From assembly GCF_011065895.1 (NCBI RefSeq), contig NZ_JAALCR010000004.1, positions 248,001-312,000 of the forward strand: 64,000 nt of DNA, in the 5' to 3' direction. Numbering within the stretch: position 1 is the stretch's first letter; each line of letters begins with the position of its first letter. The position numbers and the translations under genes are program-made. Below the pieces are notes generated by a model that was not told the origin of the DNA, searched no databases, and worked only from the letters and a program-made list of their open reading frames with translations. Below are positions 16,414-46,867 of the stretch, piece by piece. Source of the stretch: Paludisphaera rhizosphaerae (lineage in GTDB: Bacteria; Planctomycetota; Planctomycetia; Isosphaerales; Isosphaeraceae).

Positions 16414-16490
16414 TGACGTTGAGCGAAAGGCATCGTATGCCGAGCGGGGGGCGACGGTCAAGGGAGGGTCTGATCGCCGGGGATGGAGAC

Positions 16491-30521: not shown

Positions 30522-30578
30522 CTCGAAAGCTCTCCGATCGATGGCTAGTGAAAAGACGCGTTCTGGTGGATACGTGTT

Positions 30579-32054
30579 TCAATTGGGGTCAGCGGCCCGG
30601 CCCGCGCTCGACCTCGTCGGCGCGGCGCGGAGGTTGGCGAGCATCAGGGCGGCTTCGCGAGGCAGGTGGCGGGCGCCGGCGAGCAGCACGAAGCCGGCGG
30701 CGGCCAGCGTCGGAGCGGCGAACAGCAAGGCGGCCGCCACGTTCTCCGGCGATCGGCCTCCGACCACCTGGGGATTCGCCCCGATCATGGCCAGCACCCG
30801 GCCGAAGGTCGTGGCCATGAGATCGGGCTGGCCGAAGGACTCAGCCGCCCAGCCGGTCAGCCGAGGCGCCCAGGCGTCGCCGAGCAACTGGACCACGGCC
30901 ACCGCCGCGCCGCAGGCCACGCCCCGCATGTTGGGCGCGGCGACCGAGGCCAGGATGGCGAAGCAAGGCCCGAGGTTGACCGAGGCCAGAGCGACGGTCG
31001 CGAACAGGGCCGCCGGTTGCCAGGGCCGGCTCGGGCCCAGGAAGGCCACCAGCCAGCAAGGGACGGCGGCGGCGGCCGCCAGCGCCGGGATCAGGAAGTA
31101 GGCCCGGGGATCGGTCCGCCCCCAGCGGTCGGCCAGCCAGGCGCCGATGAGCAGCCCCACCGCCGCAGCCGCAGGGGGAAGCGTCCCCGTGAAGGTCGCT
31201 GCGACCGGCTCAGGCAGGCCGCGGGCGCCCATCAGGAAGGTCGGCAGCCAGGCCGTCAGGGCGCTGATCGCGAAGGCCGTGAACGTCAGCCCGAAGACGG
31301 AGTAGGTGAACGAGGAATTCACCATCAGGTCGACGTAGTCCTCGGCGCTCGGCCCGAAGGACTCGTGCCGCCGAAGTTGGGCGACGGGCACGCCCTCGCT
31401 GAGGCCGCGGACGGGGTCGGGGAGGGTCAAGCTCGCCAGGGCCAGCACCAGCGCCGGAGCGCCGGCCGCGAGGAAAGCCGTCTGCCAGGTCGTCGCGTGG
31501 GCCAGCGGCGGCCCGAGGCACAGCGCGAGCGCCGCACCGACCGGCCCGGCCAGGAAGTAGACCGCCAGGGCTCGAGCGCGGACCGTGCGAGGGAAGACGT
31601 CCATGAGCATCGTCAGGGAGACCACCCCAGCCGTCGCCGTTCCCAGGCCCACCAGGGCGCGGGCCCGCTGGAGCGCCGGGTAAGTGGCGGCCAGTCCCGA
31701 GGCCACCCCCGCCAGGCCGAAGGCGGCGATCCCCAGGGCCAGCAGCCGAGGCCGTCGAACGCGGTCGGCGAAGTAGCCCAACGTGGGAGCCCAGAGCGCC
31801 GCGGCGACCAGCGGCAGGGCCTCCAGCCAGTCGGCCTGATCGTCCCAGAGGTCCAATTCGCGACCGATCGGCAGGGCCAGGGCGGGGAAAAGCCAGCGAT
31901 CCATCGAGGCCAGCAGATTGGCCAGGAAAAGGAATCCCAGCAGCCCCCAGGTCCACCACGGGATAGGCCGAGGGTTGGAGAGCCTGCTCGGGAGGTCGGC
32001 ACGCCTGGGCGGCGGCCCGTCTCCGGCGATCGGCTCATGACTCGGCTGGCTCAC
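30579..32054 (-). CDS. Major facilitator superfamily transporter (Spinster/ACS-like)
   Basis: 491 residues with 12 predicted spans. Typical MFS pieces are the N-terminal span FLFLANLLASMDRWLFPALALPIG, the loop 2-3 motif GYFADRVRRPRLLALG, FPRTVRARALAVYFLAGPVG, and the equivalent second-half motif GAWLADRWGRTDPR. The substrate is unknown. The start is GTG 32054, after a GGAGAGAGA sequence. The first 30 residues are Pro/Arg-rich and cytoplasmic. It is transcribed away from the retron-like operon across a 200-bp divergent gap. Confidence 0.85.
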   Translation of the reverse strand: MSQPSHEPIAGDGPPPRRADLPSRLSNPRPIPWWTWGLLGFLFLANLLASMDRWLFPALALPIGRELDLWDDQADWLEALPLVAAALWAPTLGYFADRVRRPRLLALGIAAFGLAGVASGLAATYPALQRARALVGLGTATAGVVSLTMLMDVFPRTVRARALAVYFLAGPVGAALALCLGPPLAHATTWQTAFLAAGAPALVLALASLTLPDPVRGLSEGVPVAQLRRHESFGPSAEDYVDLMVNSSFTYSVFGLTFTAFAISALTAWLPTFLMGARGLPEPVAATFTGTLPPAAAAVGLLIGAWLADRWGRTDPRAYFLIPALAAAAAVPCWLVAFLGPSRPWQPAALFATVALASVNLGPCFAILASVAAPNMRGVACGAAVAVVQLLGDAWAPRLTGWAAESFGQPDLMATTFGRVLAMIGANPQVVGGRSPENVAAALLFAAPTLAAAGFVLLAGARHLPREAALMLANLRAAPTRSSAGRAADPN

Positions 32055-32260: not shown

Positions 32261-32510
32261 TCCTGAAGAGGTCTGTGCTAGCTCGACGCCCTGCGTCGGG
32301 GCGGCGTTGCGCCGCCCGAGTTTCACGCCGAACATCCGTCACAGCGAAGGCTGTTTCAGACTCGCTTCTCGGGGGAATAACCCCTCCGGCGTGGGCGGGC
32401 CTGGGGCAACCCCGCCGGACGGGGTTCCGCCCACGCCGGAGGGGTTATTCCCCCGGCGAGTCAGAGAGCCTTCGATGTCCCAGGTTTTGTGGTAGACGAA
32501 CCTCTCAGGA
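32261..32510 (+). ncRNA. Predicted retron msr-msd RNA
   Basis: Retron architecture read directly from the DNA. a1 TCCTGAAGAGGT (32261-32272) pairs with a2 ACCTCTCAGGA (32500-32510), 11 bp with one bulged A. A TAGC follows a1 (32279-32282), where the branching G is expected (32281). msr hairpins follow: CGACGC/GCGTCG (32284-32298), GGGCGGCG/CGCCGCCC (32299-32317) and ACAGC/GCTGT (32341-32354). Then comes the msd: a 7-bp outer stem (32359-32365/32456-32462) and a perfect 29-bp inner stem (32370-32398/32427-32455). No protein-coding explanation fits. It precedes the four-gene operon whose last gene encodes a retron-type reverse transcriptase. It was folded by eye only. Confidence 0.7.
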
Positions 32511-32604
32511 AAACGGGGCGGTCGATCCGGAAGACCTCCGGGTCGGCCGCCCGTCGTCGCGTATCGGCCGATGTCTTACTCGACATGAATCGAGGCCCTC
32601 TCCA

Positions 32605-35600
32605 GTGGCCACCCCGATCCGCCTTGAGGACGTCCAGCTCGCCTGGCAGGCGAGGGACCCGGAGACCGTCGCCCTCGTCGTCGACCTCGCCCGGCAGGAC
32701 GACCCCGAACCCGAGACGCCGCTCCGCCCCGGAGCGCCGACGTTCGCGGCGTTCCTGGCCGAGATCCGCTCCAAGGCGTTCCGCGCCAAACCGCGAGACG
32801 TCCAGGCCAGCGAGCGTCAGGCGAAGCTCCGGGCGCTGGAGGCGCCCGACGCCGAGCTCCCCCTCCCGGATCGCTTCAAGCTGCACACGATCCTGGAAGA
32901 GCTCTGGGCCGACGGCGGCCCGATCGCCCGGTCGTGGCTGCTCCGGATCATCGCCCAGATCCCGGCACGCTATGGTCCCTGGAAGGCCCTCAAGCGGATC
33001 TTCAAGGAGGCCGAGGCCCGGGGCGACGCCGAGGTCTTCGCCGCCCTCGCCGCCCGGTTCGACGAGATGCACGCCGAGGGAGTCTCCGAGGTCGGCCGCG
33101 CCACGCTGGCCTACCTCCGGCGTCGCGGCTGGCGGGCCCTGCGACGGGCCGCCGAGCGCCTGCCGGCCTCCTACCCAGATCTCGCCTGCGACGTCCTCGC
33201 GTGCTACGGCGAACGGACGAACTGGACGCGGACGTGGATCGCCAACCAGATCTTCTTCCATGAGGCCGGCGGCTACGGCAAGGACGAGTTCAGCAGTCCG
33301 GTCGTACACTCCAGCGACCTCCTGAAACACCGCGCCTATCCCGACCTCTGGAAGCGCACGCCCCGGCCCCTCTTCGGCCTGCTGGAGAAGGCCCGCAACG
33401 ACCGTCCCCGGAGGTTCGCGGCCGAGGCGCTGAAGGCCGACTTCCGGGCCTCGCTGCGCGAGGTCGAGCCAGCCTGGGTCGCCCGGCTGGTGGACGTTAG
33501 CAGCGAGCCCGTCGACGCCCTCATCGTCTGGATCCTGACGAACGTCCCCCGGTTCGAGCAGTCGGCCTTCCGCTCGCTGGGGCTGCACGAACCCGTCCTG
33601 AAGCTGTTCGACTCCCCCTCGCAGGAGGCTCGCACTTACGCCGCCGGCTACGCCCGAACCCACGCCCGCGACCTGCCCGTCGACGAGCTGATCCGCCTGA
33701 CCGACAACGACAACCAGGCTGTGCGAAAGCTGGCCGCCGACCTCCTGGGCGACCGCGACCCCCGCACCGAAGTCGGACTCGAAGCCTGGGGAAGGCTCCT
33801 CAACACGCAGCACGGCGCCAAACTCGCTGGGGAGGCCATCCGCAAGAACTTCGGTGCGAAGGAACTGAGCCCCGACTGGTTCCGCGACCACCTGCTCACC
33901 GACAGCCGCGAGGCGTTCGGTTTCCTGAAGGACCTGCTCGCGCGCCTCCATCCGACGGAAAAGCTCGGGGCGGGGTTCTTTCGCGACCTCATCGTTAAGG
34001 AGAGCAAGTCTCACGTTGGCTATCAGGTGCTCCTGGTCCCGTTCGCCATGGGCGAGCTGGCGAGGTTCGACCTGAACGAGCAGCCCGCCGACTTTCTCCG
34101 CCGTCTCCTGCTGAATCGGTCGACCCAGACTCAGACCGTCCGATGGGTCGAGGAGGGGAAGCTCAAGGTCCCCACGTTGGGCGTCGACTTCCTCAAGGCC
34201 CTCGCTTACGAACCGGACTTCGGGACGAATTCCTGGATCGCCGAGTTCCGCCGCACCGGGCCGGAATGGGCCCGGAAGCTCTCGTTCGACCAGGGCCTAT
34301 CCGACAAGGTCCGCGCCTGGCTCGCGGACGTGCGGAAGGTCCCGCCGGCCGACCTGGGATTCGACTGGCTCCTGTCGCTGGCGGCTCGATCGGAGCCCGC
34401 CTACCACGACTTCGCCGTGAGCGTCCTCACCAAGGGCTTCACGCCGGCCGACTTCGCCCCCCGCGAAGCGCCCGCGACGACCGCCCAGGCAGCCGGACCG
34501 GTCGACCTGAAGGGGGCGTCGTTCCTCTTCACCGGCAAAATGGCGACCCTCAAGCGGAAGGACGGCGAGGACCAGGTCAAGGCGGCAGGGGGGACGACGG
34601 CTTCGGGAGTCAACGCGAAGCTGCATTACCTGGTGATCGGCGACGAGGGGTCGCCCCTCTATGGCCACGGCAAGAAGGGGGACAAGCAGACCAAGGCCGA
34701 GTCGCTGAACGCCGCCGGAGCGAACATCAAGATCATCTCCGAGACGGCCTTCCTGAAGATGCTGGCCGGCGGGGTGCAGGAGGTGTCGACCGACGCCGTG
34801 ATGGCCGGCTGCGAACGCCTCTGGCAGATGGCGACGGCCCCCGGCCCGGCCGACGCGCCGAAGGCCCGGTTCGCCGTCGAGTACATCCTCAAGCACCACC
34901 CCGACATCGCCCTGGCCAAGACCGAACGACCCGTCGACCCCGGGGCGGAGATCCCCGCCGAGTTCCTCACGTTCGAGAGGGTCGAGCCCCTCTTCTACGA
35001 GTCCCGCAAGCCGCTTCGCGACCTGGCGTTGGAGCTGGCGCGTTGGGAGTTCGCCCGCTGGGCTCCGCCGTCCGACGCCCTCGTCCGGCTGGCAGAGAGC
35101 CCCCACGCGGACGTCCACCGGTTCGTTACGGATGCCCTGCTGGCCGAAGAAGCCCCCGAACATCGCCGCTTCCGGATCGACCCGGAGAGCCTGAGCCCCG
35201 CCGCCGTGTACGCCTTCTGCGAGTCGGCCGACGCGTCGACGCGGGACCTCGGCATGCAGCTCATCGGCCGCTCCCCCCGACTCCGGCGGCCCGAGGAATT
35301 GTTCCGCCTGACCGACAGCCCAGACCGCCGGATGCGGGCGTTCGTGATCCGGGCCCTCTGGTCGCTCTATCGCGACCGTGGCATCACGGAGGGCTGGAAA
35401 CCCTCGGCGCCGCCGAGTTCCACGATCGGCGCGGGGACTCGAAAGGCAGCCGCCGCGGCGGCCGAGAACCGGGGCACGGGCGCTCCCGCCCGCCCCGACA
35501 ACCTGCCGGCGCAACCGACCGGCATGTGGGGCCTGCTCCGCCGCTCGCTGTTCGAGCTTCCTCCGCCCAGGCCCGAGAAGGGCGAGAAGTCCGCCGGCGG

Positions 35601-35829
35601 CGAGAAGCTCAAACCGCTCCCCGCCCGCAAGGCCAAGCTGGCGATGATCGAGGTCATCCGCGACCTGGCCCTTGAGGACGTCGACTTCGCCCGGGGCGCC
35701 CTCCCCTTGCTGGAGGAGTTCCTCCCCTCGCGCGGGCCGAGCGAACGGGCCGCCTGCCTGACGGCCGTAACCCGCATTCGCCACGTCTGGCCCGAGCTGC
35801 GGCGACGGGCCGAGGAGGCGGCCTCTTGA
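32605..35829 (+). CDS. HEAT-repeat protein with internal BRCT domain
   Basis: 1074 residues from GTG 32605 (cGAGG upstream, conserved-looking VATPIRLEDVQLAW). Helical HEAT/ARM-like repeats fill the N-terminal 620 residues (for example SPSQEARTYAAGYARTHARDLPVDELIRLTDNDNQAVRKLAADLLGDRDP) and much of the C-terminal part (SPHADVHRFVTDALL, DSPDRRMRAFVIRALW). Between them, about residues 632-716, lies a BRCT domain: KGASFLFTGKMATLKRKDG, VKAAGGTTASGVNAKLHYLVIGD and INIKIISETAFLKML-like end, as in NAD-dependent DNA ligase. It probably binds DNA ends or nicked/branched nucleic acid. It is first gene of the operon, directly behind the predicted msr-msd, and its stop overlaps the next start (TTGA). A longer frame to 32206 would cover the RNA structure and is not coding. 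Confidence 0.8.
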   Translation: MATPIRLEDVQLAWQARDPETVALVVDLARQDDPEPETPLRPGAPTFAAFLAEIRSKAFRAKPRDVQASERQAKLRALEAPDAELPLPDRFKLHTILEELWADGGPIARSWLLRIIAQIPARYGPWKALKRIFKEAEARGDAEVFAALAARFDEMHAEGVSEVGRATLAYLRRRGWRALRRAAERLPASYPDLACDVLACYGERTNWTRTWIANQIFFHEAGGYGKDEFSSPVVHSSDLLKHRAYPDLWKRTPRPLFGLLEKARNDRPRRFAAEALKADFRASLREVEPAWVARLVDVSSEPVDALIVWILTNVPRFEQSAFRSLGLHEPVLKLFDSPSQEARTYAAGYARTHARDLPVDELIRLTDNDNQAVRKLAADLLGDRDPRTEVGLEAWGRLLNTQHGAKLAGEAIRKNFGAKELSPDWFRDHLLTDSREAFGFLKDLLARLHPTEKLGAGFFRDLIVKESKSHVGYQVLLVPFAMGELARFDLNEQPADFLRRLLLNRSTQTQTVRWVEEGKLKVPTLGVDFLKALAYEPDFGTNSWIAEFRRTGPEWARKLSFDQGLSDKVRAWLADVRKVPPADLGFDWLLSLAARSEPAYHDFAVSVLTKGFTPADFAPREAPATTAQAAGPVDLKGASFLFTGKMATLKRKDGEDQVKAAGGTTASGVNAKLHYLVIGDEGSPLYGHGKKGDKQTKAESLNAAGANIKIISETAFLKMLAGGVQEVSTDAVMAGCERLWQMATAPGPADAPKARFAVEYILKHHPDIALAKTERPVDPGAEIPAEFLTFERVEPLFYESRKPLRDLALELARWEFARWAPPSDALVRLAESPHADVHRFVTDALLAEEAPEHRRFRIDPESLSPAAVYAFCESADASTRDLGMQLIGRSPRLRRPEELFRLTDSPDRRMRAFVIRALWSLYRDRGITEGWKPSAPPSSTIGAGTRKAAAAAAENRGTGAPARPDNLPAQPTGMWGLLRRSLFELPPPRPEKGEKSAGGEKLKPLPARKAKLAMIEVIRDLALEDVDFARGALPLLEEFLPSRGPSERAACLTAVTRIRHVWPELRRRAEEAAS

Positions 35830-38800
35830 GCGCGACGACCGACTACACCATCCCGTTTCGCGGCGACCTCAAGGCGATCGCCGGCGTCGGCTCCGCCGTC
35901 GCGCTGGCGACGCGCCATCCCGAGGCTCGGCCGACCGCCCTGTTCTGGGTCGACCAGGGCGACGACCGCCCGCGATCCCACGGCGAGGAGTTCCCCGGCG
36001 GCGTCACCGCCATCGCCGACAGCGACTCCGTCTGGATCGCCGGGACCGACGGCCATGTCTATCGGGCGCCGCTCGACGGCCCGCCAAAAGCGATCGGCCC
36101 GAAGGTCGGCGAAGCGAAGGCGCTGGCCCTGCTCTCCGACGACCGGCTCGGCGTACTCGTGGGCCGCGAGGTGAGGGTCCTCGCGCGAAAGGACGGCAAG
36201 CTCGCGCAGACGATCGAGCTGCCCGAGCCGGGCTCGACGCTGGCGAGCGACCCATCCGGCAAGTGGCTGGCGGTTGGGACCACCGATGGGCTGGTTTCGA
36301 TCTACGAGGCCGAGTCCTCGGCCGATTTCGCCCCCGGCGACTCCGCCCGACTACACGAAGGCGAAGTCACGGCCATCCTGTTCGAGCGCGACGACCTGCG
36401 TTTCTTCTCGGCCGGAGCTGACATGAAGCTCCTGTCGACCCACGCGCGAGGCAAGCTGGAGCCCGAGGACAAGGGTCGCGCCAACAACCACTCCGATCGG
36501 ATCACGGCCATGATCTGGGGGCCGGAGGACCGCCTGCTCACGGGCAGCCTCGACGGCACGGTCAAGTCGTGGCCGCGTGTCGGAGGGGTCAAGCCGACGA
36601 CGCAGAAGGAGGGCGTGGTCCGAGTCTTGGGGATGGCCCTGGTCAAGCGGCACGGGCGCGACCACCTCGTCGTGGCGGGCGGGGACGACACGCTCCGCAC
36701 CTTCGTCATCGACGCCGCCGGCAAGCCCGCCGGCCTGATGCTCCGCGGCTGCGGCGCGATGGACGCGACCAGGGCAGACCTCGCCGGCGACGACCCCCGT
36801 GCTCGCGAAGCGGCCATCCGTCGACTGGCCGAGTTCGACGACGCGGCCTCCCTCTCGCTCCTCGCCGAGCAGGCCGTTCGCGATCCCGACCACGGCCTGA
36901 GGCTTCTGGCCGTGCAGTCGCTCGGGCAGTCCGACCATCCCAAATCCCCTGCGTTGCTGGAGGGCCTATTCTCGCACGCCGAAGCCGCTGTCCGCACCGC
37001 CGCGTTCGAAGGGCTCCGCCGCCAGCGCGGTCCGGCCGACCTTCGCGTCCTGGACCTCGCCCTCAAGGCCGAGAAGCCCGAGATCGGCAAGCTCGCCGTT
37101 GAGGCTCTGGGGACACTCGCCGGCAAGGACGACCAGGCGCTGACCCGCCTGACCACAGCCCTCTCGGCCAAGACGCCGGAGGTCCGCCAGGCGGCCCTGA
37201 TGGCGCTGGAATCGGCCTACCCGGCCGACTCGCCCGAGGCGAATCTCGCGGCCCTCGGAACGTCCCACGCTGATGTCCGGCGGGCGGCGCTGATGAGGCT
37301 GTTCGCCCGCAAAATGCTGGGCGACGCCACGGTCCAGTCGGCCCTGCGTCGACGCGTCGAGGACGCCGATCCCGAAGTTCGTCGGGTCGCCTTTCTGCTC
37401 TCGCTCCATACCCGCCCCGCCCTGCTCTCCGCCCTGCGCTCGCGCGACCCGGAGTTGGAGCGTCAACTGGCCGACCTCGAAGGCGGCCAGGATCCGTCGT
37501 CCGCGGTCGCGAAGCCGAAGAAGGGCCGCGGCGAGGCTACGACGAAGGCCGAAACGCCGAGCGACGAGGAGTTGACGCCCCTGCTCCAGGCGTCGGCCAG
37601 CAGCGCTCTCGAGACCAGCCTGCGGGGAGCCCGCGGCCTGGCCGTTCTGGGCGACCCCCGGGCCTTCGGCCTCCTGTTGCAGCTAAGTCGCGAAGAGGAC
37701 GAGAAGGCCCGAGTCGAGGCCTGCCGGGCCATGGCCGCGCTCGACGACGCTCGAGGGGCTGAGCGGCTGAGGTCGCTCCTGTACGACCCCTCGCTCGCCG
37801 TCCGAGACGCCGCCTTCACCGCCCTGGCCCGTCTTCTCGAAGACGAGCCCCTCAAAGCGGCCGAAGCCGGGCTCAACGCACCGTCTGAGAACGTCCGCCA
37901 GCGAGGGCTCCAACTCCTGGTCGCCGAGGCGCGCAAGGCCCCGATCAAGAGCCTCGAAGATCGCCCCGCCGCGATGCTGGCCGATGCGCTGAACGACTCG
38001 TTCAAGACGGTCCGATCCGAGGCGTTCAAGGCCGCGCTCAATCTGAAGGTCGGGGGCGGAGGCGCCGCCACGCTTCGGTACGTGATGAGGAGCCAGCACG
38101 CCGACGTCCGTCGCGAGGCGATGACCGAAGCCATGGCGAACGCCGGCGAGCCGGGCGGCTGGGACGCCGTCTTCGAGTTCCTCAACGACCCCGACCCCGG
38201 CCTCCGTTCCGAGGCGTACGAGTTCGCGTCCAGAAAGACGAAGGGGCTGGAGACACTCGACGCCGCCCTGGGATCGCGCTACCCCGACTTGCGCAAAGCG
38301 GCCGTCGACGGCCTCGTCAAAAAACACACGGCCGCCGCGCAGAAGCTGCTCGCGCGGGCCCTGGACGACGAGGAGAAGAACGTTCGACTGGCCGCGTTGG
38401 AGGCCCTCGTCGGGGCCGACGCCCAGCCCGTGTTGCGAACGGCCGTTGAGAACCCTCACGCCGACGTTCGGGTCCGAGCGGCCCGCGCTCTGGCCAGGCA
38501 CGGAGACCCGGCCGCGCTCAAGCCGCTGATCGCGTTGGCGACGGCTCTCGAACCCGAGGAAGAGGAACGCCGCAAGGACTGGTCGAGCCTCGCCGAATCA
38601 GCCCTGCTCGGCCTCGGGCAGCTTGGCGACGCCTCCGCGCTGACGGCCCTCATCCCGCTGATCGACAGCCCGCACGCACCGATCCGCCAGGGGGCGACGC
38701 GAGCCCTGGCCTGGCTCACTCCGGCCGACCGCTCGGCCCCGCTGCGCGACGCCCTGCGACACCACGACGCGGTCGTCCGGGACCTCTCGGCGTTCGGCCT

Positions 38801-41800
38801 GACGCTCCTCGGAGATGCCTCGGCGGGCCCGCTCGTCTTCGCGGATTCGGCGAAGACCCTGAAGCCCTGGGAACGGTTCGCAGCGGCGGTGGCGCTGTCG
38901 GGGACCGCGATCGGCGACGGCTCCCTCGTGGCCGGGCTCGACGACTCGGACGAGAAGATCCGGGCCCGGATCCTCCTGCTTCTGTTGATGATGGAGTGGA
39001 AGGCGCCCCGCGAGGGCTCGCCGCTCGTCCTGGCCGCGCTGGCCGGCCGCGATCCCCGAACGCGGCTCGTCGCGGCCGAGGCCCTGGAGGCGATGGCCGC
39101 CGGCGCGGGGGGCCTCGCCGAGTTCATCGTCAAGACGATCAACGACCGCGGCGGCAAGCTTCCCTGGACGATCCCCGCCGCCGTCGTGGACGACCTGGCC
39201 GAGTTGCTCGTTCACGCTGAGCCTCGCCTCCGCGCCCGGTCGGCCGAGTTGCTCCGGGCGCTGGAGAGTGACGAACAGGCTGCGTGGGACCAGACCTGGG
39301 CGACACACGCCGAGCGCTTCGCCGCCGCGATCGAGGCCCTTCGCAAAGCGGCCGCGAAACGTCGCTCCACAACAGATCAGGCCCCGCCGAAAAGCCTCCG
39401 TGAGCTGGCCCTCGGCGCCTACGTCGGGCTGCTCCGCAATCAGGGCGGGACGCAGAAGGCCGGCGACCCGGCCACGTTGAGAGTGCGGCGATCGGCGCTG
39501 GGCCGTATCGAGACTTTGGCCAAGAATGATCCGACGATCGCCTCGGCCGCCCGCCCGGTGCTGGTGCAGGTCCTGGGCGACCCGAACGCGGCGATCCGCA
39601 TCCCGGCGTTCGAGTGCCTCCCCGTGCTGGGCATGGAGCCCACGACCCTCGCGGCCGAGGCCCTGGCGACGGGGCACGTCGACCTGGGCGTGAAGGCCCT
39701 GGAGATCCTGGCCGCGGGCGGATCGACGGCCGAGGGCCGCCGCGTCCTGGACGAGGCGATGCTGACCCGACGCGACGACCTGGCCATTGAGGCGGCTAAA
39801 CTCCTGATCGCCCGCGAAGGGACGACTCCCGTCGCGACGAGGGCGCTGGAGGGCGCCCACGAACCGCTCCGGAAGGCCGCCGTCGCCTGGCTGGCCGACG
39901 AGGCCGAGAAGGACGAGAAGGCCCGCGTGTCCCTCCGCGCAGCGCTCTCCTCGCGGCATGCGCCCGTCCGCGAGGCCGCCGCGATGGCCCTGGCCGCGCG
40001 GAAAGACGCCTCGGCCTTCGACGCCCTGGTCGCCCTGCTGAAAGCGGCCCCCGATGCGAACGCCGCCCGTCGCTGCATCGCCGCCCTGACGACGCTCGGC
40101 GATCCTCGCACCGCCACGGCTTTCCTCGACCGCGTCGAGAACGATCCGTCCGAGACCGCGCCGGCCGACGAACTCATTCGCGCCGTCGGTGGCTTCGGCC
40201 GGCCGGAGGTCATCGACCGCCTCTTCGCCCTCTGGGACAAGGACCGTAAGCGCGGGCTGCCGGCCTACCAGGCCCTCTTCACGATCAGCGGCCACCACCA
40301 ACGGATCGAGGATCCGGAGGACGAAGCCCCCGACCGCCGTTGGGAGGAGAAGCAACTCCCGAGACGCGACGACGTGCTGGCCCGCCTTCTCGCACGCCTC
40401 ACCGCACCGGGCGAAAAGGGAGCCATGGCGCTCATCCCCGCCGCCCGTTGGTCGCGGTCGAAGGAGGTCGACCCGGTCCTCGCCGGCCTGATCGGCCACC
40501 CGGACGAGGCGATCCGACGCGCGGCGATCGAGGCGATCGGCTGGCGGCTTCGCAAGCGTTCCGGCGACCCGGCCGTCCTGGTCAAGGCGTTGGCCTCGAA
40601 GGATCCCGTCGCGCAGTTGCTCGCGGCCGAGGGCCTGGCTCGGGTCGGGCGGCCCGAAGGACTCTCGGTCCTGATGGCGAGCGTTGAGTTGGTCCCCGAC
40701 CTGAACCTCCGCCGCCGGGCCGTCCTGGCGCTCGGCGAGTTGGCCGACGAGCGTGCCGCCGAGATGCTCATCAAATTGGCGTCCGACGACGCCCACGCCC
40801 TCAACGAGGCCGCCGCCGAGGCGATCGGACACCTCGGAAAGTCGAAGCACGCCGAGGCCGTCGAGCGGCTGCTCGTACGGTTGGCCGATGGGAGCGGCGG
40901 CGTGGCCTACCAGGCGATCAAGGGGCTCCGCTGGCTCGACACGGCCCAGGGATGGCGGGTCCTCCGCAGGCGGGCCGGCGAGGACTCAGCGCCGCATCGC
41001 GAGATCGCCATCGAACAACTCGCCCACAACGACGATCCTGCCACCCGGGATCTGTTGCTCAAGCTGATCCGCGAAGACATCTCGAACGAGGAGCAGGCGT
41101 ACGCCGCGGCCCGCAAACTCTGGGGCCCGGACGCTCTCGAACCCGACGAGGCCCTGCTCCAGAGTGTGTACCCCGAGGGCTTCGAGGAGTACGACGAGGC
41201 CCTGAAACGCGGCTCCGAGCGTTCCTCCCCCTCCCGGATTTTCGCCATTCTTCCCTCCTGTGAGGACGACGACGTCCGCAAGGCTCTGGCGCGGGCGCTT
41301 CTGACGCGGAAGGACGTGCCGACCGCCGAGGCCAGGGACGCTCTCGACAGCCTGGACCCGGCCGTTTCGGGCCTCGCGGCGCACATTCTCGGCCGGTCCG
41401 GCGAGGCCGCGAAGGGTGGCGCGAAGTCGGTCGAAACGACGCTGACGCGCTGGTGGAAAGCCTGGGTCGATCGGCGCAAGACTTCGCGAACGGTCGGCCT
41501 GGGAGATGACGACGCTCAAGCTCTCGTCGAATGTCTGGGCCTCGTCGCCTGGGCCGCAGGACGACTGGGCGTCGGAGGAGAAACCCTGGCCGCGATGGCG
41601 AGCCTCCCCGAGGCGGATCGCCAGGCCGTCGAGATGCGACGGTCGGCCGTGGAGGCGCTCGCGGCCTCGCCCGCGAGAAAGCTCGCCGTCGCCGCTCTGG
41701 AGGAAGCCGTCTCGACTACTGGCCCCGAGACCCGAGCGCTCGCGGCCCAGATCGTGACCGAGGACGCGCCTGACAAGGCCTTACCGCTTGCGGAGAAGCT

Positions 41801-42173
41801 CCTGGCCGACCGCTGGGCCTTCGATCGGGTGGCTCGCGGTAGGTCTGCACGGCTCTCGAACGTCCTCCGCCAGGCCTCGCGCCAGAGCCATTACCAGGGC
41901 GTCGCGCTGCCGTATCTCGTCGCGCAAAAGGACGTGGAGGGCCTGGCCGCCGTCGCCGGGGATCGTTCCGCGGCCGAAGGCGCGCGGCTCGGCGCGATCG
42001 AGGCGCTCGCCGCGCTTGCGACGGAGCCGGCCGAGGACGTCCTCCGCAAGATCGGCCTCGATGAGCGCGAGGAGGAAGACCTCCGCAAGGCCGCCTGGCG
42101 AGGGCTCCGTAAATCGAAGCGGCTCCGGACGCCGAAGCCCACCAAGACTCCAACCCCCAAGGTGAGCGGATGA
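35826..42173 (+). CDS. Giant WD40 beta-propeller plus HEAT-repeat protein
   Basis: 2115 residues. The first 310 look like a WD40/beta-propeller (SVWIAGTDGHVYRAPLDG, LHEGEVTAILFERDDLRFFSAGAD, ITAMIWGPEDRLLTGSLDGTVKSWP, LVVAGGDDTLRTFVI). From about residue 320 to the end there are dozens of HEAT units of about 31 residues with the pattern DPxxxVRxAAxxAL. The start is TTG 35826, overlapping the previous stop (TGA 35827-35829), with GAGGAGG eight bases upstream. The stop overlaps the next gene by ATGA. No enzymatic domain is visible; I infer a cytoplasmic scaffold. It corresponds to the ARM component of the retron class that also has SWIM and RT proteins. Confidence 0.85.
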   Translation: MSATTDYTIPFRGDLKAIAGVGSAVALATRHPEARPTALFWVDQGDDRPRSHGEEFPGGVTAIADSDSVWIAGTDGHVYRAPLDGPPKAIGPKVGEAKALALLSDDRLGVLVGREVRVLARKDGKLAQTIELPEPGSTLASDPSGKWLAVGTTDGLVSIYEAESSADFAPGDSARLHEGEVTAILFERDDLRFFSAGADMKLLSTHARGKLEPEDKGRANNHSDRITAMIWGPEDRLLTGSLDGTVKSWPRVGGVKPTTQKEGVVRVLGMALVKRHGRDHLVVAGGDDTLRTFVIDAAGKPAGLMLRGCGAMDATRADLAGDDPRAREAAIRRLAEFDDAASLSLLAEQAVRDPDHGLRLLAVQSLGQSDHPKSPALLEGLFSHAEAAVRTAAFEGLRRQRGPADLRVLDLALKAEKPEIGKLAVEALGTLAGKDDQALTRLTTALSAKTPEVRQAALMALESAYPADSPEANLAALGTSHADVRRAALMRLFARKMLGDATVQSALRRRVEDADPEVRRVAFLLSLHTRPALLSALRSRDPELERQLADLEGGQDPSSAVAKPKKGRGEATTKAETPSDEELTPLLQASASSALETSLRGARGLAVLGDPRAFGLLLQLSREEDEKARVEACRAMAALDDARGAERLRSLLYDPSLAVRDAAFTALARLLEDEPLKAAEAGLNAPSENVRQRGLQLLVAEARKAPIKSLEDRPAAMLADALNDSFKTVRSEAFKAALNLKVGGGGAATLRYVMRSQHADVRREAMTEAMANAGEPGGWDAVFEFLNDPDPGLRSEAYEFASRKTKGLETLDAALGSRYPDLRKAAVDGLVKKHTAAAQKLLARALDDEEKNVRLAALEALVGADAQPVLRTAVENPHADVRVRAARALARHGDPAALKPLIALATALEPEEEERRKDWSSLAESALLGLGQLGDASALTALIPLIDSPHAPIRQGATRALAWLTPADRSAPLRDALRHHDAVVRDLSAFGLTLLGDASAGPLVFADSAKTLKPWERFAAAVALSGTAIGDGSLVAGLDDSDEKIRARILLLLLMMEWKAPREGSPLVLAALAGRDPRTRLVAAEALEAMAAGAGGLAEFIVKTINDRGGKLPWTIPAAVVDDLAELLVHAEPRLRARSAELLRALESDEQAAWDQTWATHAERFAAAIEALRKAAAKRRSTTDQAPPKSLRELALGAYVGLLRNQGGTQKAGDPATLRVRRSALGRIETLAKNDPTIASAARPVLVQVLGDPNAAIRIPAFECLPVLGMEPTTLAAEALATGHVDLGVKALEILAAGGSTAEGRRVLDEAMLTRRDDLAIEAAKLLIAREGTTPVATRALEGAHEPLRKAAVAWLADEAEKDEKARVSLRAALSSRHAPVREAAAMALAARKDASAFDALVALLKAAPDANAARRCIAALTTLGDPRTATAFLDRVENDPSETAPADELIRAVGGFGRPEVIDRLFALWDKDRKRGLPAYQALFTISGHHQRIEDPEDEAPDRRWEEKQLPRRDDVLARLLARLTAPGEKGAMALIPAARWSRSKEVDPVLAGLIGHPDEAIRRAAIEAIGWRLRKRSGDPAVLVKALASKDPVAQLLAAEGLARVGRPEGLSVLMASVELVPDLNLRRRAVLALGELADERAAEMLIKLASDDAHALNEAAAEAIGHLGKSKHAEAVERLLVRLADGSGGVAYQAIKGLRWLDTAQGWRVLRRRAGEDSAPHREIAIEQLAHNDDPATRDLLLKLIREDISNEEQAYAAARKLWGPDALEPDEALLQSVYPEGFEEYDEALKRGSERSSPSRIFAILPSCEDDDVRKALARALLTRKDVPTAEARDALDSLDPAVSGLAAHILGRSGEAAKGGAKSVETTLTRWWKAWVDRRKTSRTVGLGDDDAQALVECLGLVAWAAGRLGVGGETLAAMASLPEADRQAVEMRRSAVEALAASPARKLAVAALEEAVSTTGPETRALAAQIVTEDAPDKALPLAEKLLADRWAFDRVARGRSARLSNVLRQASRQSHYQGVALPYLVAQKDVEGLAAVAGDRSAAEGARLGAIEALAALATEPAEDVLRKIGLDEREEEDLRKAAWRGLRKSKRLRTPKPTKTPTPKVSG

Positions 42174-44047
42174 GCGACGAGCCCCTGCCGCCGGACGTCC
42201 CCTCCGACGAGCCGCCCGCCGTCGAACGGACGGAGGTCCACCTGGCCTACCACGGCGCGAGCCGGCTGACGACCACCGAGGACTCGGCCCGGCTGGCCCT
42301 GGCCGCCAACATCCTCCGCCCCCCCGCGCGGTTCGACGGCGTCATCAAGGATCCGATCCGCTTCCGCGAGGCGATGTCCGCCCTCTACGCGGTCGTCGCC
42401 AGCGACATGCGGTATCAGCCCAAGGACCGCACGGCGTACCTCGCCTACATGCGGATGAGGCGTGAATCGTCGGGGCTCGACGTCTGGCAGGCCCAGCGCG
42501 AGTATTTCGGCTGGCTCTTGCGGAACGACCCGCTCGCGTTCGTGATCCTCGACCCGGTCGTGACGGTCCATCCCGACGAGGTCTTCTTCGAGGTCTTCAG
42601 CAAGGACGAAGGGGCGTACGCGAAGCTGGGCGTCGACCGCGACTGCTTCTCCAGCGCGACCGACCCAACCTACGGCACGACGAACATCGACTTCAGCCAG
42701 TCGCTCTACCAGGGCCTCCAGCAGATGCGCTCCTATCGGGAGACGAGGCTGACGATTGGCCCCGAGGGCGTGGGGCTGATGACGAAGGCGTCCGGCGAAG
42801 TCCTGGAGAAGACGATCCGCGTGCCGGATTCATGGCTCCGCGGGTTCCTCCAGGTCCAGTCGGCCGCCGCGCTGCCGAGGGACACGTTCGCCCTCGCGCC
42901 GATCGATCTCTACAACGCCCTGCGTCACCTGCGTCTCCACGCCGATGAGAAGGGCAAACGCCGAGGCCTGCGCGTCGAGTTGATGCCCGGCCAGCCGCCC
43001 CGCCTGGTGCTCGAGCCATGGAACGAGGTGATTCCCACGACGGCCGCACCGTACAAGGGGAAGTCGGCGCGGGTCGCAAGGGTCTGGGGACGTCGTCGGT
43101 TGATGCTCCTTCAGCGGTTCCTGCCGTTCACCGAGGAGGTCGACGTCCACCTCCTCGGCAGCGGCCTGCCTAGCTTCTGGGTCCTTCGCGGACGGGGCAT
43201 GACGCTGACGCTCGGGTTGACGGGGTTCACCTCGGCGAACTGGTCGCAGGCGCTGAACTTCGACCTGCTCCTGCCCCGCAAGGCCGAGCCCGGCGGCAAG
43301 TCGCTCGACGCCGTCCTGGAGCATCTCAACGGGCGCTGGTCGGCGGGCGCCGGCGAACTTGCGAAGGCGACGAAGCTCTCCTGGCCGGCATTGACCGAGG
43401 CCTTGCAGCTCGGCTGCCAGCAAGGGCGGATCATGTACGACCTCGCCGCCGACGTCTATCGTTTGCGGCCGTTGACCGACGCTCCCCTCGACCTGGGCCG
43501 ACTGGAGTTCCGCGACGCCCGCGAGCGGGTGGCTCACGACCTCCTCGTGCGCCGCGGGGCCGTCGAGATCGTCTCCGAGAACCGCATCCCCGGCTCGGGA
43601 CTGGAGCTGACGGGCCGCGTGACCGTTAAGGAAGACAACCGCGAATACCGCCCCAAGATGCTGCTGGCCGACGAGGGTCAGGTGACGCGGGCTGAATGCA
43701 CCTGCTCGTTCTTCCGCAAGCAGGGCCTGAAGGCTGGGCCGTGCGTTCATCTGGTCGCGTTGAGACTGGCACACGCCGCCCGCGAGGCCGAGCGGGCTTC
43801 CGGCCGCGCACCGGCGGAGGCGATCACCGCCGAGACCCGCGCGTTCAGCCGCCGCGATGCGAAGGGGGAGGACGTGTACCAGGTCACGCTCGACCGCCGT
43901 CGGCTGAAGGTCCGCTGGGGCCGCGCCGACGGGGATTCGCGGCTCCAGACGCTTGCCTTCGATTCGGTCGACGAGGCGCGGGCCGCCTATCTCGCCCGCG
44001 TCGCCGACCTCGCCGCCCGCGGCTTCCTCGACGCCTCCGCAGGATGA
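42170..44047 (+). CDS. SWIM zinc-finger and WGR-domain protein
   Basis: 625 residues. The N-terminal 480 are of mixed structure, with a winged-helix-like segment near 385-430 (AGELAKATKLSWPALTEALQLGCQQGRIMYDLAADVYRL). The SWIM finger is C510-x-C512-x12-C525-x-H527 (AECTCSFF...GPCVHLVAL). The last 60 residues (about 568-622) form a WGR domain: VYQVTLDRRRLKVRWGRADG...LAFDSVDEARAAYL. Both are nucleic-acid-binding modules. ATG 42170 overlaps the preceding stop, and its own stop overlaps the reverse transcriptase start (ATGA at 44044), so expression is translationally coupled. It matches the winged-helix-SWIM partner of the retron class with ARM proteins. Confidence 0.85.
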   Translation: MSDEPLPPDVPSDEPPAVERTEVHLAYHGASRLTTTEDSARLALAANILRPPARFDGVIKDPIRFREAMSALYAVVASDMRYQPKDRTAYLAYMRMRRESSGLDVWQAQREYFGWLLRNDPLAFVILDPVVTVHPDEVFFEVFSKDEGAYAKLGVDRDCFSSATDPTYGTTNIDFSQSLYQGLQQMRSYRETRLTIGPEGVGLMTKASGEVLEKTIRVPDSWLRGFLQVQSAAALPRDTFALAPIDLYNALRHLRLHADEKGKRRGLRVELMPGQPPRLVLEPWNEVIPTTAAPYKGKSARVARVWGRRRLMLLQRFLPFTEEVDVHLLGSGLPSFWVLRGRGMTLTLGLTGFTSANWSQALNFDLLLPRKAEPGGKSLDAVLEHLNGRWSAGAGELAKATKLSWPALTEALQLGCQQGRIMYDLAADVYRLRPLTDAPLDLGRLEFRDARERVAHDLLVRRGAVEIVSENRIPGSGLELTGRVTVKEDNREYRPKMLLADEGQVTRAECTCSFFRKQGLKAGPCVHLVALRLAHAAREAERASGRAPAEAITAETRAFSRRDAKGEDVYQVTLDRRRLKVRWGRADGDSRLQTLAFDSVDEARAAYLARVADLAARGFLDASAG

Positions 44048-45369
44048 CCTCTCTCATGGCCATGCAACGTCAGACCAACCCGTTCGACCTCTGGCGATCG
44101 ATCGTCCAGGCGGGAGGAATCCAGCCTTACATCAACGCCCAGCTCTCCGAGCGGGGCTTCCTCGTCGCCCGCCGCGAGACCGACGGCATGTCGGAACGCG
44201 AGCTGGCCGATTACAAGAAGTCGCTGAAGGCCGAGGCCGCAGAGCGCCGGCGGCTGCGGCGCGAGGCCTGGGCCGCCTTCCGCGCCGAGCACATCGTCCA
44301 CCTCGGCGACGGCGTCTACTGGAGCGACGAGCCCGGCCCCGATCGCTGGGACCAGCCCAACGCCGAGGTCCGGGCCGCCGAGAACGAGCTGCCGCCGCTC
44401 GACTCCCCGCGGCAACTGGCCGAGGCCCTCGGCCTGACGATCCCGCAGCTTCGCTGGCTGGCCTTCCATCGCGACGCCGCCCGACGGATCCACTACCGAC
44501 GCTTCACCATCCCCAAACGCGACGGCTCCGAACGGGCCATCTGGGCGCCGATGCCTCGGTTGAAGCGGGCCCAGCACTGGATCCTCCGGAACATCGCCGA
44601 GAAGCTCCCCGTCCACGGCGCGGCTCACGGCTTCCTGCCCGGTCGATCGATCCTCTCGAACGCCGCCCCCCACTGCGACTCCAAGGTCGTCGTGCGGATC
44701 GACCTCAAGGACTTCTTCCCGACCGTGACGCTCCGGCGCGTGAAAGGGCTCTTCCGCAAGGCCGGCTACCGCGAGCACGTCGCCACGCTGCTGGCCCTCA
44801 TCTGCACGGAGTCGCCCCGCGAGATCGTCGAGCAGGACGGCGAGACCTACTACGTGGCCCTCGGCCCCCGTTGCCTGCCTCAAGGCGCTCCAACGAGCCC
44901 GGCGATCACGAACGCGCTCTGCCTCCGGCTCGACCAGCGGCTCTCGGGCGTCGCCCGCAGCCAGGGTTGGCGGTACACGCGGTATGCCGACGACCTCACG
45001 TTCAGCCGGCCGGCCGACTCCAAGGAAGCGCCGGGAATCGGCCGGCTGCTGGGGACCGTCCGCCGGGTCGTGGGCGATGAGGGATTCACGATCCACGACA
45101 AGAAGACGGCCGTCGGTCACAACGGAGGCCGCCAGCGCGTCACGGGCCTCATCGTCAACGGCGACCGTACCCCGCGCGCGCCGCGAGAGTTCAGGCGGAA
45201 CCTGCGCGCGGCGATCCACAACCTGGTCACGGGGAAGGAGTCGCCGTCGGCCGAGCCTCCTTCGGTCCTCGCCGGCCGCGCGGCGTTCGTTGCGATGACC
45301 GACCCTTCCCTCGGCAGGGCGATGCTGGAGAGGCTCTCCCAGGCGGTCGAGCGCTCTCCGGAAGCCTGA
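44044..45369 (+). CDS. Retron-type reverse transcriptase
   Basis: 441 residues. RT motifs in order: HYRRFTIPKRDGSERAIWAP (RT1), GFLPGRSILSNAAPH with the retron-specific NAxxH at N206, VVRIDLKDFFPTV (catalytic Asp220), LPQGAPTSPAITNALCLRLD, the active site YADD at 314-317 (YTRYADDLTFSR), and the retron region Y triplet VTG at V366 (RVTGLIVNGD). About 140 N-terminal residues precede the RT core. It should extend msDNA from the branching G of its own RNA. It is last gene of the operon, its ATG overlapping the previous stop. No second RNA candidate lies close to it; the candidate is 11.5 kb upstream in front of the first gene. Confidence 0.92.
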   Translation: MTSLMAMQRQTNPFDLWRSIVQAGGIQPYINAQLSERGFLVARRETDGMSERELADYKKSLKAEAAERRRLRREAWAAFRAEHIVHLGDGVYWSDEPGPDRWDQPNAEVRAAENELPPLDSPRQLAEALGLTIPQLRWLAFHRDAARRIHYRRFTIPKRDGSERAIWAPMPRLKRAQHWILRNIAEKLPVHGAAHGFLPGRSILSNAAPHCDSKVVVRIDLKDFFPTVTLRRVKGLFRKAGYREHVATLLALICTESPREIVEQDGETYYVALGPRCLPQGAPTSPAITNALCLRLDQRLSGVARSQGWRYTRYADDLTFSRPADSKEAPGIGRLLGTVRRVVGDEGFTIHDKKTAVGHNGGRQRVTGLIVNGDRTPRAPREFRRNLRAAIHNLVTGKESPSAEPPSVLAGRAAFVAMTDPSLGRAMLERLSQAVERSPEA

Positions 45370-45372: not shown

Positions 45373-46710
45373 TCACTTCGGCGTTTCGGGCTCGGCCGGC
45401 GGGGCGGGGACTCGGGCTTCCCAGCCGAAGGGTTGCGTCCACGCCTGGGCTGGCTGGCCGGCGTAGGAAGGGTTCGCGGGAGACTTGTCGGAGGTGACGA
45501 CGGCGCGGACGTAGAGTTCGTCGCCAGTCATCCGGTACTCGGCCTTGAGGCCCTCGACGGTCGCCAGCACCTTGCCGACGTCGTCGGAGTAGCGCTGGGT
45601 GACGGCCAGCGGCTTGCCGTCCTTGTCGGCGACCGGCTTGCGGGTGCGGTCGTAGTTCTGGGGCGTGCCGATGAACCGGGTGACGTACTTTGCATCCCCC
45701 TGGGGCTCGATCTCCACCGAGAGGGTCTTCGTCTCGGGCGCGTAGTGGACGTCCTTCAAAGAGACGCCGCTGGAGGCGTAGAAGTCCCGATCCTGCATCG
45801 CCTTGATGATCGACTCCGGCGTGAGGAACCGGGCGCGGACCATGATCCAGCCTCGGCCGGGAGACGAACTGCCGTCGAAGTAGTGGTGTGAGTCGTCCGT
45901 CCCCAGACCGTTGAGCGGAGCGATTCCCATCTCGGCGATCCGCAGCGTGTTGATGATGTCCCACATCCGGTCGATCCCGACGTGGGTATCGTCGCCCTGC
46001 TGGTGGACGTCGGGGTGGCCGTTGTAGACCTCGAAGAACCGCTCCTTCGTCACCATGGCCAGTTCCTCGGCGGTGACGGCGTAGCCGAAGTTGGGGTGAT
46101 TGAGGTGGCCGATGATGGGCCGGCCCAGCCGTTTGGCCTGCTCGTCGACGGCCGCCAGGTTGTTCGACATGACCTCGGCGACACTTTTGCCCCCCTGGGG
46201 TTTGATCAGTTCGGCGACGTTGCTGGCGTTCATGTGGATGGGCTTTTTCTCAAAGCGGTCGGTGATCTCCTCGCCGGGGATGAGCAGGAATCGGCCGGGC
46301 TGTTCGAACAGGGCGCGGTATTCGCCTAGCGGCTTGAGACGGACTTCCTGGTCGCCGTTGACCATACGGGTCTCGATCCAGGCGTCGCCGAACCGAGCAC
46401 GGTAGCGGTCGAAGCCCTTGTGCCTGGCCCGCTTATCGGCGGCGGCGACGCTCATCCACTTGGTCCCCTGCCCCAGGACGTTGTGATCGGAGAGGGCGAG
46501 AAACTGGTAGCCGCGACGGACGTACCAATCGACGACCATCTCCGGATAATCGTCGCCGTCGCTCCAGAGCGTATGCGTATGCAGGTTCCCCTTGAACCAT
46601 CGAGTCTGGGCCCCAGCCGTGGGCGAGCCGTCGTCCTGGGAACGAGCCGTCGCCGGGTCGAGAGCGAGGAGCAGGGAAACGAGGGCGGTCGTCAGGGCGA
46701 AGCGGCTCAT
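45373..46710 (-). CDS. Secreted PHP-domain protein
   Basis: 445 residues. The N-terminus MSRFALTTALVSLLLALDPATARSQ is a signal peptide. The PHP metal-binding motif GNLHTHTLWSDGDDYPE (His44, His46, Asp51) is followed by FLALSDHN, IPGEEIT, IIGHLNHPNFGY, FFEVYNGHP and GLGTDDSHHYF, which together supply the metal ligands. A phosphoesterase-like activity is expected outside the cytoplasm; the substrate is unknown. About 120 C-terminal residues form a beta-rich extension. ATG 46710. It converges on the reverse transcriptase with only 3 bp between stops and no terminator, and is divergent from the histidine kinase. Confidence 0.85.
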   Translation of the reverse strand: MSRFALTTALVSLLLALDPATARSQDDGSPTAGAQTRWFKGNLHTHTLWSDGDDYPEMVVDWYVRRGYQFLALSDHNVLGQGTKWMSVAAADKRARHKGFDRYRARFGDAWIETRMVNGDQEVRLKPLGEYRALFEQPGRFLLIPGEEITDRFEKKPIHMNASNVAELIKPQGGKSVAEVMSNNLAAVDEQAKRLGRPIIGHLNHPNFGYAVTAEELAMVTKERFFEVYNGHPDVHQQGDDTHVGIDRMWDIINTLRIAEMGIAPLNGLGTDDSHHYFDGSSSPGRGWIMVRARFLTPESIIKAMQDRDFYASSGVSLKDVHYAPETKTLSVEIEPQGDAKYVTRFIGTPQNYDRTRKPVADKDGKPLAVTQRYSDDVGKVLATVEGLKAEYRMTGDELYVRAVVTSDKSPANPSYAGQPAQAWTQPFGWEARVPAPPAEPETPK

Positions 46711-46836
46711 CGATCGGTCTCCGAACGTCGGGGAGGTGATCCGGGGGGCGATTATAGAAGGACCGACGACGCGTCGAAAGCCGCCCGAGCCGACAGTCTC
46801 TGACCCAATGAATTCGGACGAGGACGATCCAGCGCG

Positions 46837-46842
46837 TATAAT
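46837..46842 (+). promoter_or_regulatory. Perfect -10 box (TATAAT) upstream of the histidine kinase
   Basis: TATAAT at 46837-46842, with a weak -35 (TTCGGA, 46813-46818, 18-bp spacing). The expected start near 46849 supports ATG 46868 as the kinase start over the in-frame ATG at 46808. Confidence 0.5.
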
Positions 46843-46867
46843 TTCGGCGGGAGGGAATGACGCGAGT

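What the first reader, a model, noticed from the sequence alone, without database searches (positions are those of the whole stretch)
32261..45369. Complete retron-like operon: msr-msd candidate, HEAT-BRCT, WD40-HEAT, SWIM-WGR and reverse transcriptase
Four genes overlap stop-to-start (TTGA, ATGA, ATGA), so they are made as one unit. The last encodes an RT with NAxxH, YADD and VTG, the marks that separate retron RTs from group II intron and DGR enzymes. As I recall, a retron class (type XIII) is defined by ARM-repeat and winged-helix-SWIM partners, and these are largely uncharacterised. This locus has them plus a BRCT-HEAT protein and a candidate RNA. Hypothesis: RT-msDNA is held on the WD40/HEAT scaffold, and the BRCT, SWIM and WGR modules sense DNA ends or phage nucleases.
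Basis: partly seen in the sequence, partly recalled or inferred. Interest (0 to 1): 0.88.

Follow-up and report, generated by a model that had tools for sequence, protein, structure and literature searches.

The report
Retron with a clamp-like partner protein
This is a real bacterial retron (a reverse-transcriptase system of a kind thought to guard against phages); in relatives its RNA is often encoded far from the operon or in several copies with differing hairpin sequences, and one of its partner proteins is predicted to fold like the sliding clamps that encircle DNA.

Summary
Confirmed: 32261-45369 is a complete type XIII retron. All four proteins match PADLOC type XIII models, and the genes recur together in Planctomycetota, Myxococcota, Pseudomonadota and others, so the class is known. 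The candidate RNA is real: 50 distinct relatives keep its fold, and all 29 pairs of the msd stem vary on both sides.

Three things go beyond the finding. (1) In 16 of 32 cassette-bearing genomes no copy of the RNA lies within 3 kb of the operon; it is 15 kb to megabases away or on another contig. Some genomes hold 2-6 copies. (2) Within this branch the hairpin is nearly constant in length and perfectly paired, but in most close pairs its sequence drifts much faster than the rest. (3) Residues 54-364 of the SWIM protein are predicted to have a PCNA-like sliding-clamp fold (Z 15.8, 219 residues, rmsd 2.9).

The Myxococcus version looks like the founding retron Mx162. The mechanism is inferred: a clamp/WGR/BRCT/HEAT complex holding a constant-length msDNA duplex and responding to its damage. 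No msDNA, defence or clamp activity was tested. The defining paper on type XIII (Mestre 2020, recalled) could not be read.

The parts
32261..32510 (+). msr-msd RNA gene: a1 32261-32272, TAGC with presumed branch G at 32281, msr hairpins about 32285-32317, msd base stem 32341-32365/32456-32478, variable 29-bp stem 32370-32398/32427-32455, a2 32500-32510
   Evidence: (R1 195.6 bits; the window is one of the 16 sequences in R1)
32605..35829 (+). gene 1, HEAT/ARM solenoid with a BRCT domain (residues 635-713, 34507-34743); GTG start inferred
   Evidence: PADLOC HEAT-ARM_XIII PDLC02921 1143 bits; BRCT in 17 of 24 members at E <= 0.1; AlphaFold pLDDT 85, pTM 0.55, alpha-solenoid matches
35826..42173 (+). 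gene 2, WD40 propeller (about residues 105-296) then HEAT repeats, 2115 aa
   Evidence: PADLOC HEAT-ARM_XIII PDLC02919 2012 bits; HEAT_2 1.1e-82, WD40 7.8e-9
42170..44047 (+). gene 3: PCNA-like clamp fold (residues 54-364), region that looks like a winged helix by its predicted elements (about 376-432), SWIM zinc finger (501-531), WGR (about 554-622)
   Evidence: PADLOC SWIM_XIII 669 bits over residues 22-540; Pfam SWIM in 22 of 25 and WGR in 6 of 25 members at E <= 0.1, window's own hits below Pfam's cut-offs; model pLDDT 80; clamp matches Z 15.8
44044..45369 (+). retron reverse transcriptase with about 110-residue N-terminal extension
   Evidence: PADLOC RT_XIII 540 bits; RVT_1 1.1e-18; NAxxH, YADD, VTG; the best solved relatives are retron RTs

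Best explanation
A type XIII retron of the four-gene branch. SHOWN by sequence or prediction: an operon of RT, two large HEAT proteins (one with BRCT, one with WD40) and a clamp-fold/SWIM/WGR protein; a matching msr-msd RNA family; in relatives the RNA may lie in cis or far away, single or multiple. INFERRED: the RT copies the RNA into a branched msDNA whose core is a perfect duplex of near-fixed length. Because length and pairing are kept but sequence is not, the duplex is bound without sequence reading, most simply by the clamp-like protein, with WGR and BRCT touching nicks or ends and the HEAT proteins as scaffold. Damage, cleavage or displacement of the msDNA by a phage changes this assembly and releases a response. 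No catalytic effector domain was recognised, so the response may be stoichiometric (for example interference with replication) rather than enzymatic.
For: PADLOC type XIII matches to all four proteins and to six homologous proteins tested from Paludisphaera soli, M. xanthus, a Verrucomicrobia MAG and N. exedens. RNA covariation: 92.4% of cells paired against 64.8% shuffled, 924 against 273 double changes, 0 of 500 shuffles; sliding the partner by 1-3 columns drops pairing to 38-44%. R1 found in 32 of 32 cassette genomes, 20 of which gave nothing to the model. In 45 genomes of the order the RNA at 150 bits or more occurs in 10 (4 of them contributed to the model), and all 10 carry a cassette RT, truncated in one; one further genome, G431, has a broken cassette RT and no RNA match; Fisher 3e-9. 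Hairpin span is 84-87 nt in 49 of 51 copies. Clamp fold: Z 15.3-15.8 for the 50 rows shown, 537 of 998 chains at Z 8 or more and only two between 5 and 8; clamps and processivity factors dominate the named rows of the viral library. Invariant Arg in helices 62-77, 220-232, 244-256 and 308-316 of the clamp region, compatible with a DNA-facing surface.
Against: Nothing shows msDNA, DNA binding, ring formation or defence. The clamp match is structural only; the sequence profile finds no clamp in the PDB. Only gene 3 of the window's branch was folded; type-b SWIM proteins were not. Fixed hairpin length holds only inside the branch: L069 has 99 nt, a second G065 copy matches over 156 nt instead of about 191, and type-b perfect hairpins are mostly 59-78 nt. 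The a1/a2 pairing is significant in only 30 of 56 copies. Fast stem drift could be plain neutrality and needs no binding model; in Nannocystis the stems hardly change. The cassette is not always compact: in two Myxococcaceae, G416 and G417, gene 1 lies about 9 and 25 kb from gene 2.
Confidence: 0.6

Rival explanations
1. Standard tripartite toxin-antitoxin retron: one of the partner proteins is a toxin held inactive by RT-msDNA, and the stem sequence is itself what phage proteins attack, so stems diversify under an arms race and several RNAs widen the repertoire.
For: Stems diverge far more than flanks between many paralogues: tandem copies in L260 22/58 against 2/134, L248 against L249 34/60 against 5/131, every changed pair in these two comparisons still Watson-Crick (Fisher 2e-11 and 3e-16). 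Genomes with 2-6 copies carry mostly different stems.
Against: Nannocystis copies A and B nearly keep their stems across the 4 species compared. Three stem 20-mers have no exact match in IMG/VR. No toxin domain recognised in the libraries searched.
Confidence: 0.35
2. Housekeeping or stress role rather than phage defence: a DNA-integrity sensor kept vertically, with msDNA as internal reference duplex.
For: Myxococcal Mx162 and Sa163 are described as vertically inherited (PMC6868368, passage); two Nannocystis RNA copies nearly keep their stems between species; clamp, WGR and BRCT are DNA-repair type modules (roles of WGR and BRCT recalled).
Against: Patchy in the window's order (RNA in 10 of 45 genomes); retrons in general are described as anti-phage systems (abstract starts of PMC12548924 and PMC8989520).
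Confidence: 0.2
3. The distant RNAs belong to other, unseen retron RTs and not to the four-gene operon.
For: Nannocystis exedens has a second, type-b RT elsewhere.
Against: No cassette gene is matched in the fetched 10-20 kb of 19 of 20 loci with distant or extra copies, and only an RT fragment at 27.5% identity near the other, L246. The type-b system has its own RNA beside its RT. R1 finds no RNA beside the operons whose RNA is distant.
Confidence: 0.12

Closest known systems
Retron type XIII (PADLOC retron XIII models; classification of Mestre et al. 2020, recalled)
   Same: RT_XIII, HEAT-ARM_XIII and SWIM_XIII models matched over nearly the whole models
   Different: No published RNA, clamp fold or distant RNA for it turned up in the searches made of the CC-licensed library; the only type XIII mention found is a PADLOC label in a Variovorax strain (PMC11953036, passage). 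The 2020 paper itself is not held.
Retron-Mxa1 (Mx162) and Retron-Nex2 (Ne144)
   Same: M. xanthus L142: 485-aa RT, CAGC site as printed for Mx162 and an N-terminal RT extension (PMC6868368, passages), same RNA family (150.9 bits), same cassette. The 485-aa length of the Mx162 RT is recalled.
   Different: In Myxococcaceae the RNA sits between SWIM and RT, and gene 1 has no match to residues 465-731, the stretch that holds BRCT; the window has the RNA before gene 1. Identity to Mx162 was not checked against its own record.
PCNA / DnaN / 9-1-1 sliding clamps
   Same: Predicted fold over a whole PCNA protomer (model 54-363 against PCNA 1-255)
   Different: 7-15% identity in the rows shown, no sequence-profile match, joined to SWIM and WGR
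msDNA-like chromosomal repeats of Nannocystis exedens (Lampson and Rice 1997; Lampson et al. 2002; titles only, from the reference list of PMC6868368)
   Same: msd-only copies also seen here in two genomes (L253, L254)
   Different: The full-length distant RNAs found here keep both msr and msd; whether those papers describe them is unknown to me

Membership tests
Retron | RT with NAxxH, YADD, VTG | tested here: met
Retron | structured msr-msd with hairpin msd | tested here: met
Retron | AGC priming site in the msr | tested here: met
   TAGC in the window; (T/C)AGC within 45 nt in 50 of 56 copies, against roughly 0.3 expected per copy by chance (own arithmetic)
Retron | a1/a2 end pairing | tested here: met
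   window p 0.035; p <= 0.05 in 30 of 56, about 3 expected; 2 further copies cut by contig ends were dropped
Retron | branched msDNA is made | not testable with these tools
   indirect only: msd-only genomic copies L253, L254
Retron | phage defence | not testable with these tools
   no assay available
Retron type XIII | RT_XIII, HEAT-ARM_XIII, SWIM_XIII | tested here: met
   540, 1143 and 2012, 669 bits
Sliding clamps | clamp fold | tested here: met
   predicted model only
Sliding clamps | sequence relationship | tested here: inconclusive
   no match at E <= 10 in PDB sequences
Sliding clamps | ring assembly round DNA | not tested
   no oligomer was predicted

The most novel reading that the evidence does not exclude
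A retron that runs on a sliding clamp: the SWIM protein forms a PCNA-like ring or half-ring on a near-fixed-length msDNA duplex, and the operon serves several msr-msd genes, often in trans and in arrays, each making an msDNA of the same geometry but different sequence, so that one protein machine carries a repertoire of DNA probes.
Probability: 0.25. Interest if true: 0.9.

Novelty: new variant of a known kind. Interest (0 to 1): 0.74.

Why it matters
To my knowledge type XIII is among the least studied retron classes, and its Myxococcus form appears to be Mx162, the retron found first and, as far as I know, still without a function. A defined RNA family, a clamp-like protein and RNAs that live away from their RT give three direct tests. 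The distant RNAs also mean that surveys which look only beside the RT would miss the RNA: here in 16 of the 32 cassette genomes searched.

Tried and rejected
Rejected: that the long hairpin is a dispersed repeat (in the own genome only short matches of 22-28 nt besides itself and its antisense; the only other R1 match is that antisense). Rejected: known Rfam family (the RNA region has no hit at gathering; the permissive matches lie far below their cut-offs and the best are microRNA-type hairpins). Rejected: group II intron RT (51.6 bits of a 300 cut-off; RT_XIII 540); no DGR model was tested specifically. Rejected: a fixed RNA position; a first look upstream of gene 1 missed it in L069 and L070, and a motif scan found it in 16 of 43 loci until the covariance model was run on whole genomes.

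No result: three stem 20-mers in IMG/VR (0 hits each); Foldseek on gene 1 gives only generic alpha-solenoids among the rows shown; PDB sequence search with the SWIM profile. Literature: type XIII with retron gave one paper, which only names a PADLOC label; retron with sliding clamp gave seven papers, none on this by listing and abstract start.

Limits: R1 E-values are rough. Pairs counted on A4 lean towards the model's structure, as A4 was fitted to it. One search was given 32 of the 34 cassette genomes with handles; G416 and G418 were left out, though their loci L125 and L138 do hold the RNA between SWIM and RT. Of 18 Myxococcaceae-type loci, 16 hold the RNA; L126 and L147 begin too close to the RT to show it. 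For G397 only about 800 nt upstream of gene 1 are on the contig, so a neighbouring RNA cannot be fully excluded. In the first tree table I had labelled L072 as SWIM-RT gap; its hairpin in fact lies just before SWIM. With that mended the distant label still needs 7 changes, 5 forced by starred branches; if L187 (15 kb away) is counted as distant too, near/distant needs 6. The odds in this report did not change. One search counted identical rows once (51 to 50).
Full report
Observation. The four genes, their TTGA/ATGA/ATGA overlaps and the RT motifs are as described. Gene 1 most likely starts at GTG 32605. PADLOC assigns all four proteins to type XIII: HEAT-ARM_XIII 1143 and 2012 bits, SWIM_XIII 669, RT_XIII 540 with the next RT model at 323. 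The class is therefore known, and the HEAT-BRCT protein belongs to it.

Relatives. A genome-contig scan with three RTs kept the best 80 of 184 confirmed matches. Of these 80, 74 hold the SWIM gene, 54 the WD40-HEAT gene, 45 gene 1 and 39 all four in the DNA held, at E 1e-5; many misses are contig or flank ends, others are the second form below. In 31 of these genomes searched whole, gene 1 is found in 31. Hosts of the cassette include Paludisphaera, Singulisphaera, Minicystis, Nannocystis, Myxococcus and Corallococcus, and bins or records titled Acidobacteriota, Gammaproteobacteria, Desulfobacterales and Verrucomicrobia. In two Myxococcaceae gene 1 is separate, about 9 kb (G416) and 25 kb (G417) from gene 2. 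A second form (called type b here) has SWIM and RT with only partial matches to the HEAT-ARM_XIII model used; the window's own genome carries one on contig C51. The RT tree of 57 rows separates the type-b form (100/100), Myxococcaceae (100/100) and the four-gene branch (100/99).

The RNA. The window's candidate folds well below shuffles (z -10.65). The same RNA was recognised downstream of the RT in L070 and L114, 2.5 kb upstream of gene 1 in L069, just upstream of gene 1 in other Planctomycetota and elsewhere, and between SWIM and RT in Myxococcaceae (16 of 18 further Myxococcaceae-type loci). A covariance model from 16 copies gives 107-201 bits for the 50 uncut copies (the 51st is cut by a contig end) and 31-68 bits (E 3e-4 to 2e-12) for 10 of 27 loci without the cassette, none of which was in the model. 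On 50 distinct copies 92.4% of cells pair against 64.8% after shuffling; all 29 pairs of the msd stem change on both sides at 96.3% paired. (T/C)AGC stands before the msr hairpin in 50 of 56 copies, and a1/a2 complementarity passes p 0.05 in 30 of 56.

Where the RNA lives. In 32 cassette genomes R1 found the RNA in 32. Reading positions: 16 have it within 3 kb of a cassette gene (G000, G065, G107, G392, G393, G400-G402, G409-G412, G414, G417, G419, G422); 6 have it on the same contig but 15 kb (G398) or about 1.9 Mb and more away (G394, G403, G406, G407, G413); 10 have it on another contig (G395, G396, G397, G399, G404, G405, G408, G415, G420, G421). G394 and G403 are titled complete chromosomes (Minicystis rosea, Nannocystis poenicansa). 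In 19 of 20 fetched neighbourhoods of distant or extra copies no cassette gene is matched; one (L246) has an RT fragment at 27.5% identity. On the RT tree the distant label needs at least 7 changes, 5 forced by well-supported branches, so it arose or was lost repeatedly. Copy number varies: two tandem copies in six Nannocystis genomes (G403, G406, G407, G408, G413, G421); at least three before gene 1 in L197 with a fourth on another contig whose cut copy shares the stem part of copy 1; six in G415.

The stem. Hairpin span is 84-87 nt in 49 of 51 copies; the exceptions are L069 (99) and one copy cut by a contig end. A second G065 copy is shorter still, and type-b hairpins are mostly 59-78 nt, so the constancy is a property of this branch. 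In most close pairs the stem diverges much faster than the rest but stays paired: tandem copies in L260 differ at 22/58 stem and 2/134 other positions; L261 against L263 10/58 and 0/133; L248 against L249 34/60 and 5/131; window against L172 16/58 and 7/133 (Fisher p 2e-11, 4e-6, 3e-16, 4e-5). Against this, Nannocystis copies show 0-4 of 48 stem changes with 0-6 of 143-144 outside, so the excess is not universal. In some pairs not all changed stem pairs kept pairing, for example L246 against L250 (3 of 8), where the gapped alignment is doubtful, and L129 against L127 (9 of 10). Arm-to-arm correction plus lack of sequence constraint would suffice; diversifying selection is possible but not shown.

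The clamp fold. AlphaFold on 25 SWIM proteins gave pLDDT 80.1 and pTM 0.82, with weak stretches around 81-130, 201-209 and 355-369. The 50 Foldseek PDB rows shown are all sliding clamps or clamp complexes. VIA-align gives Z 15.8, 219 residues, rmsd 2.9 for a PCNA of 251 residues, with 537 of 998 chains at Z 8 or more and only two more between 5 and 8. The viral library is led by phage and viral clamps. Downstream lie a region with winged-helix-like elements, SWIM (22 of 25 members) and WGR (6 of 25 members), at E 0.1. Sequence profiles do not reach clamps, so this is a fold statement, not a family statement. Gene 1 is an alpha-solenoid with an inserted BRCT; four Myxococcaceae-type genomes have no match over that stretch.

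Link to Mx162. In M. xanthus L142 the cassette holds a 485-aa RT, a CAGC site and the RNA between SWIM and RT (150.9 bits). The review PMC6868368 (passages only) gives CAGC and an N-terminal RT extension for Mx162 and groups the RTs of Mx162, Mx65, Sa163 and Ne144. The 485-aa length of the Mx162 RT is recalled. I take L142 to be Mx162 or a close homologue, unconfirmed against its record.

Reading. Shown: a type XIII retron with a real RNA family. Predicted: a clamp-like fold. Inferred: msDNA, its binding by the clamp-like protein, a DNA-integrity trigger, and a response without a recognised enzyme. Whether type XIII RNAs or distant RNAs are already in print could not be settled: the defining 2020 paper is not held, and the searches made found nothing. 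Titles of 1997 and 2002 papers show that msDNA-like repeats in N. exedens were known.

Noticed in passing
G000:C51 (L072: hairpin 11400-11470, SWIM about 11551-13203, RT about 13840-14934): A second type XIII retron, of the type-b form, in the same genome; its hairpin RNA lies just before SWIM rather than between SWIM and RT. The in-frame TAG of the first search lies outside the stretch matched without stops.
   Followed up: partly
G000:C10:220120-220848 (L003): A third retron-like RT in the same genome, weaker match (131 bits).
   Followed up: no
L253:437-522 and L254:456-549: msd-hairpin-only copies elsewhere in two genomes, near-matching the stem of the full RNA there or in sister species, as if msDNA had been copied back into the chromosome.
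   Followed up: partly
L197:15531-16670 and L251:1-592: Array of at least three, probably four, msr-msd copies with different stems before gene 1 of a Myxococcales genome.
   Followed up: partly
L260:2156-2802 and L270:88-3320: Isosphaeraceae genome G463: two tandem RNAs, an ORF that reads like an RsmH-type methyltransferase (recalled) between SWIM and RT, and an RT gene that keeps only about its first 112 residues before running into an unrelated frame.
   Followed up: partly
L266, L267, L268: Two Nannocystis genomes and one Polyangia bin carry a type-b retron with its own RNA beside the RT besides the four-gene cassette with distant RNAs.
   Followed up: partly
L199:4504-7176 and 16136-19999; L200:12825-15497: In two Myxococcaceae gene 1 has moved away from the rest of the cassette by about 9 and 25 kb.
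   Followed up: no
L072:3843-4008 and 15134-15262: Long perfect inverted repeats (36 and 29 bp) sharing GATGAGGGGG-type pieces lie on both sides of the second retron; they look like dispersed palindromes.
   Followed up: no
window 29526-32054 and 45373-47211, - strand: The retron lies between MFS-like and malate-dehydrogenase-like genes on one side and a PHP-type protein on the other (names from reading the translations); mobile-element genes were not looked for systematically.
   Followed up: no
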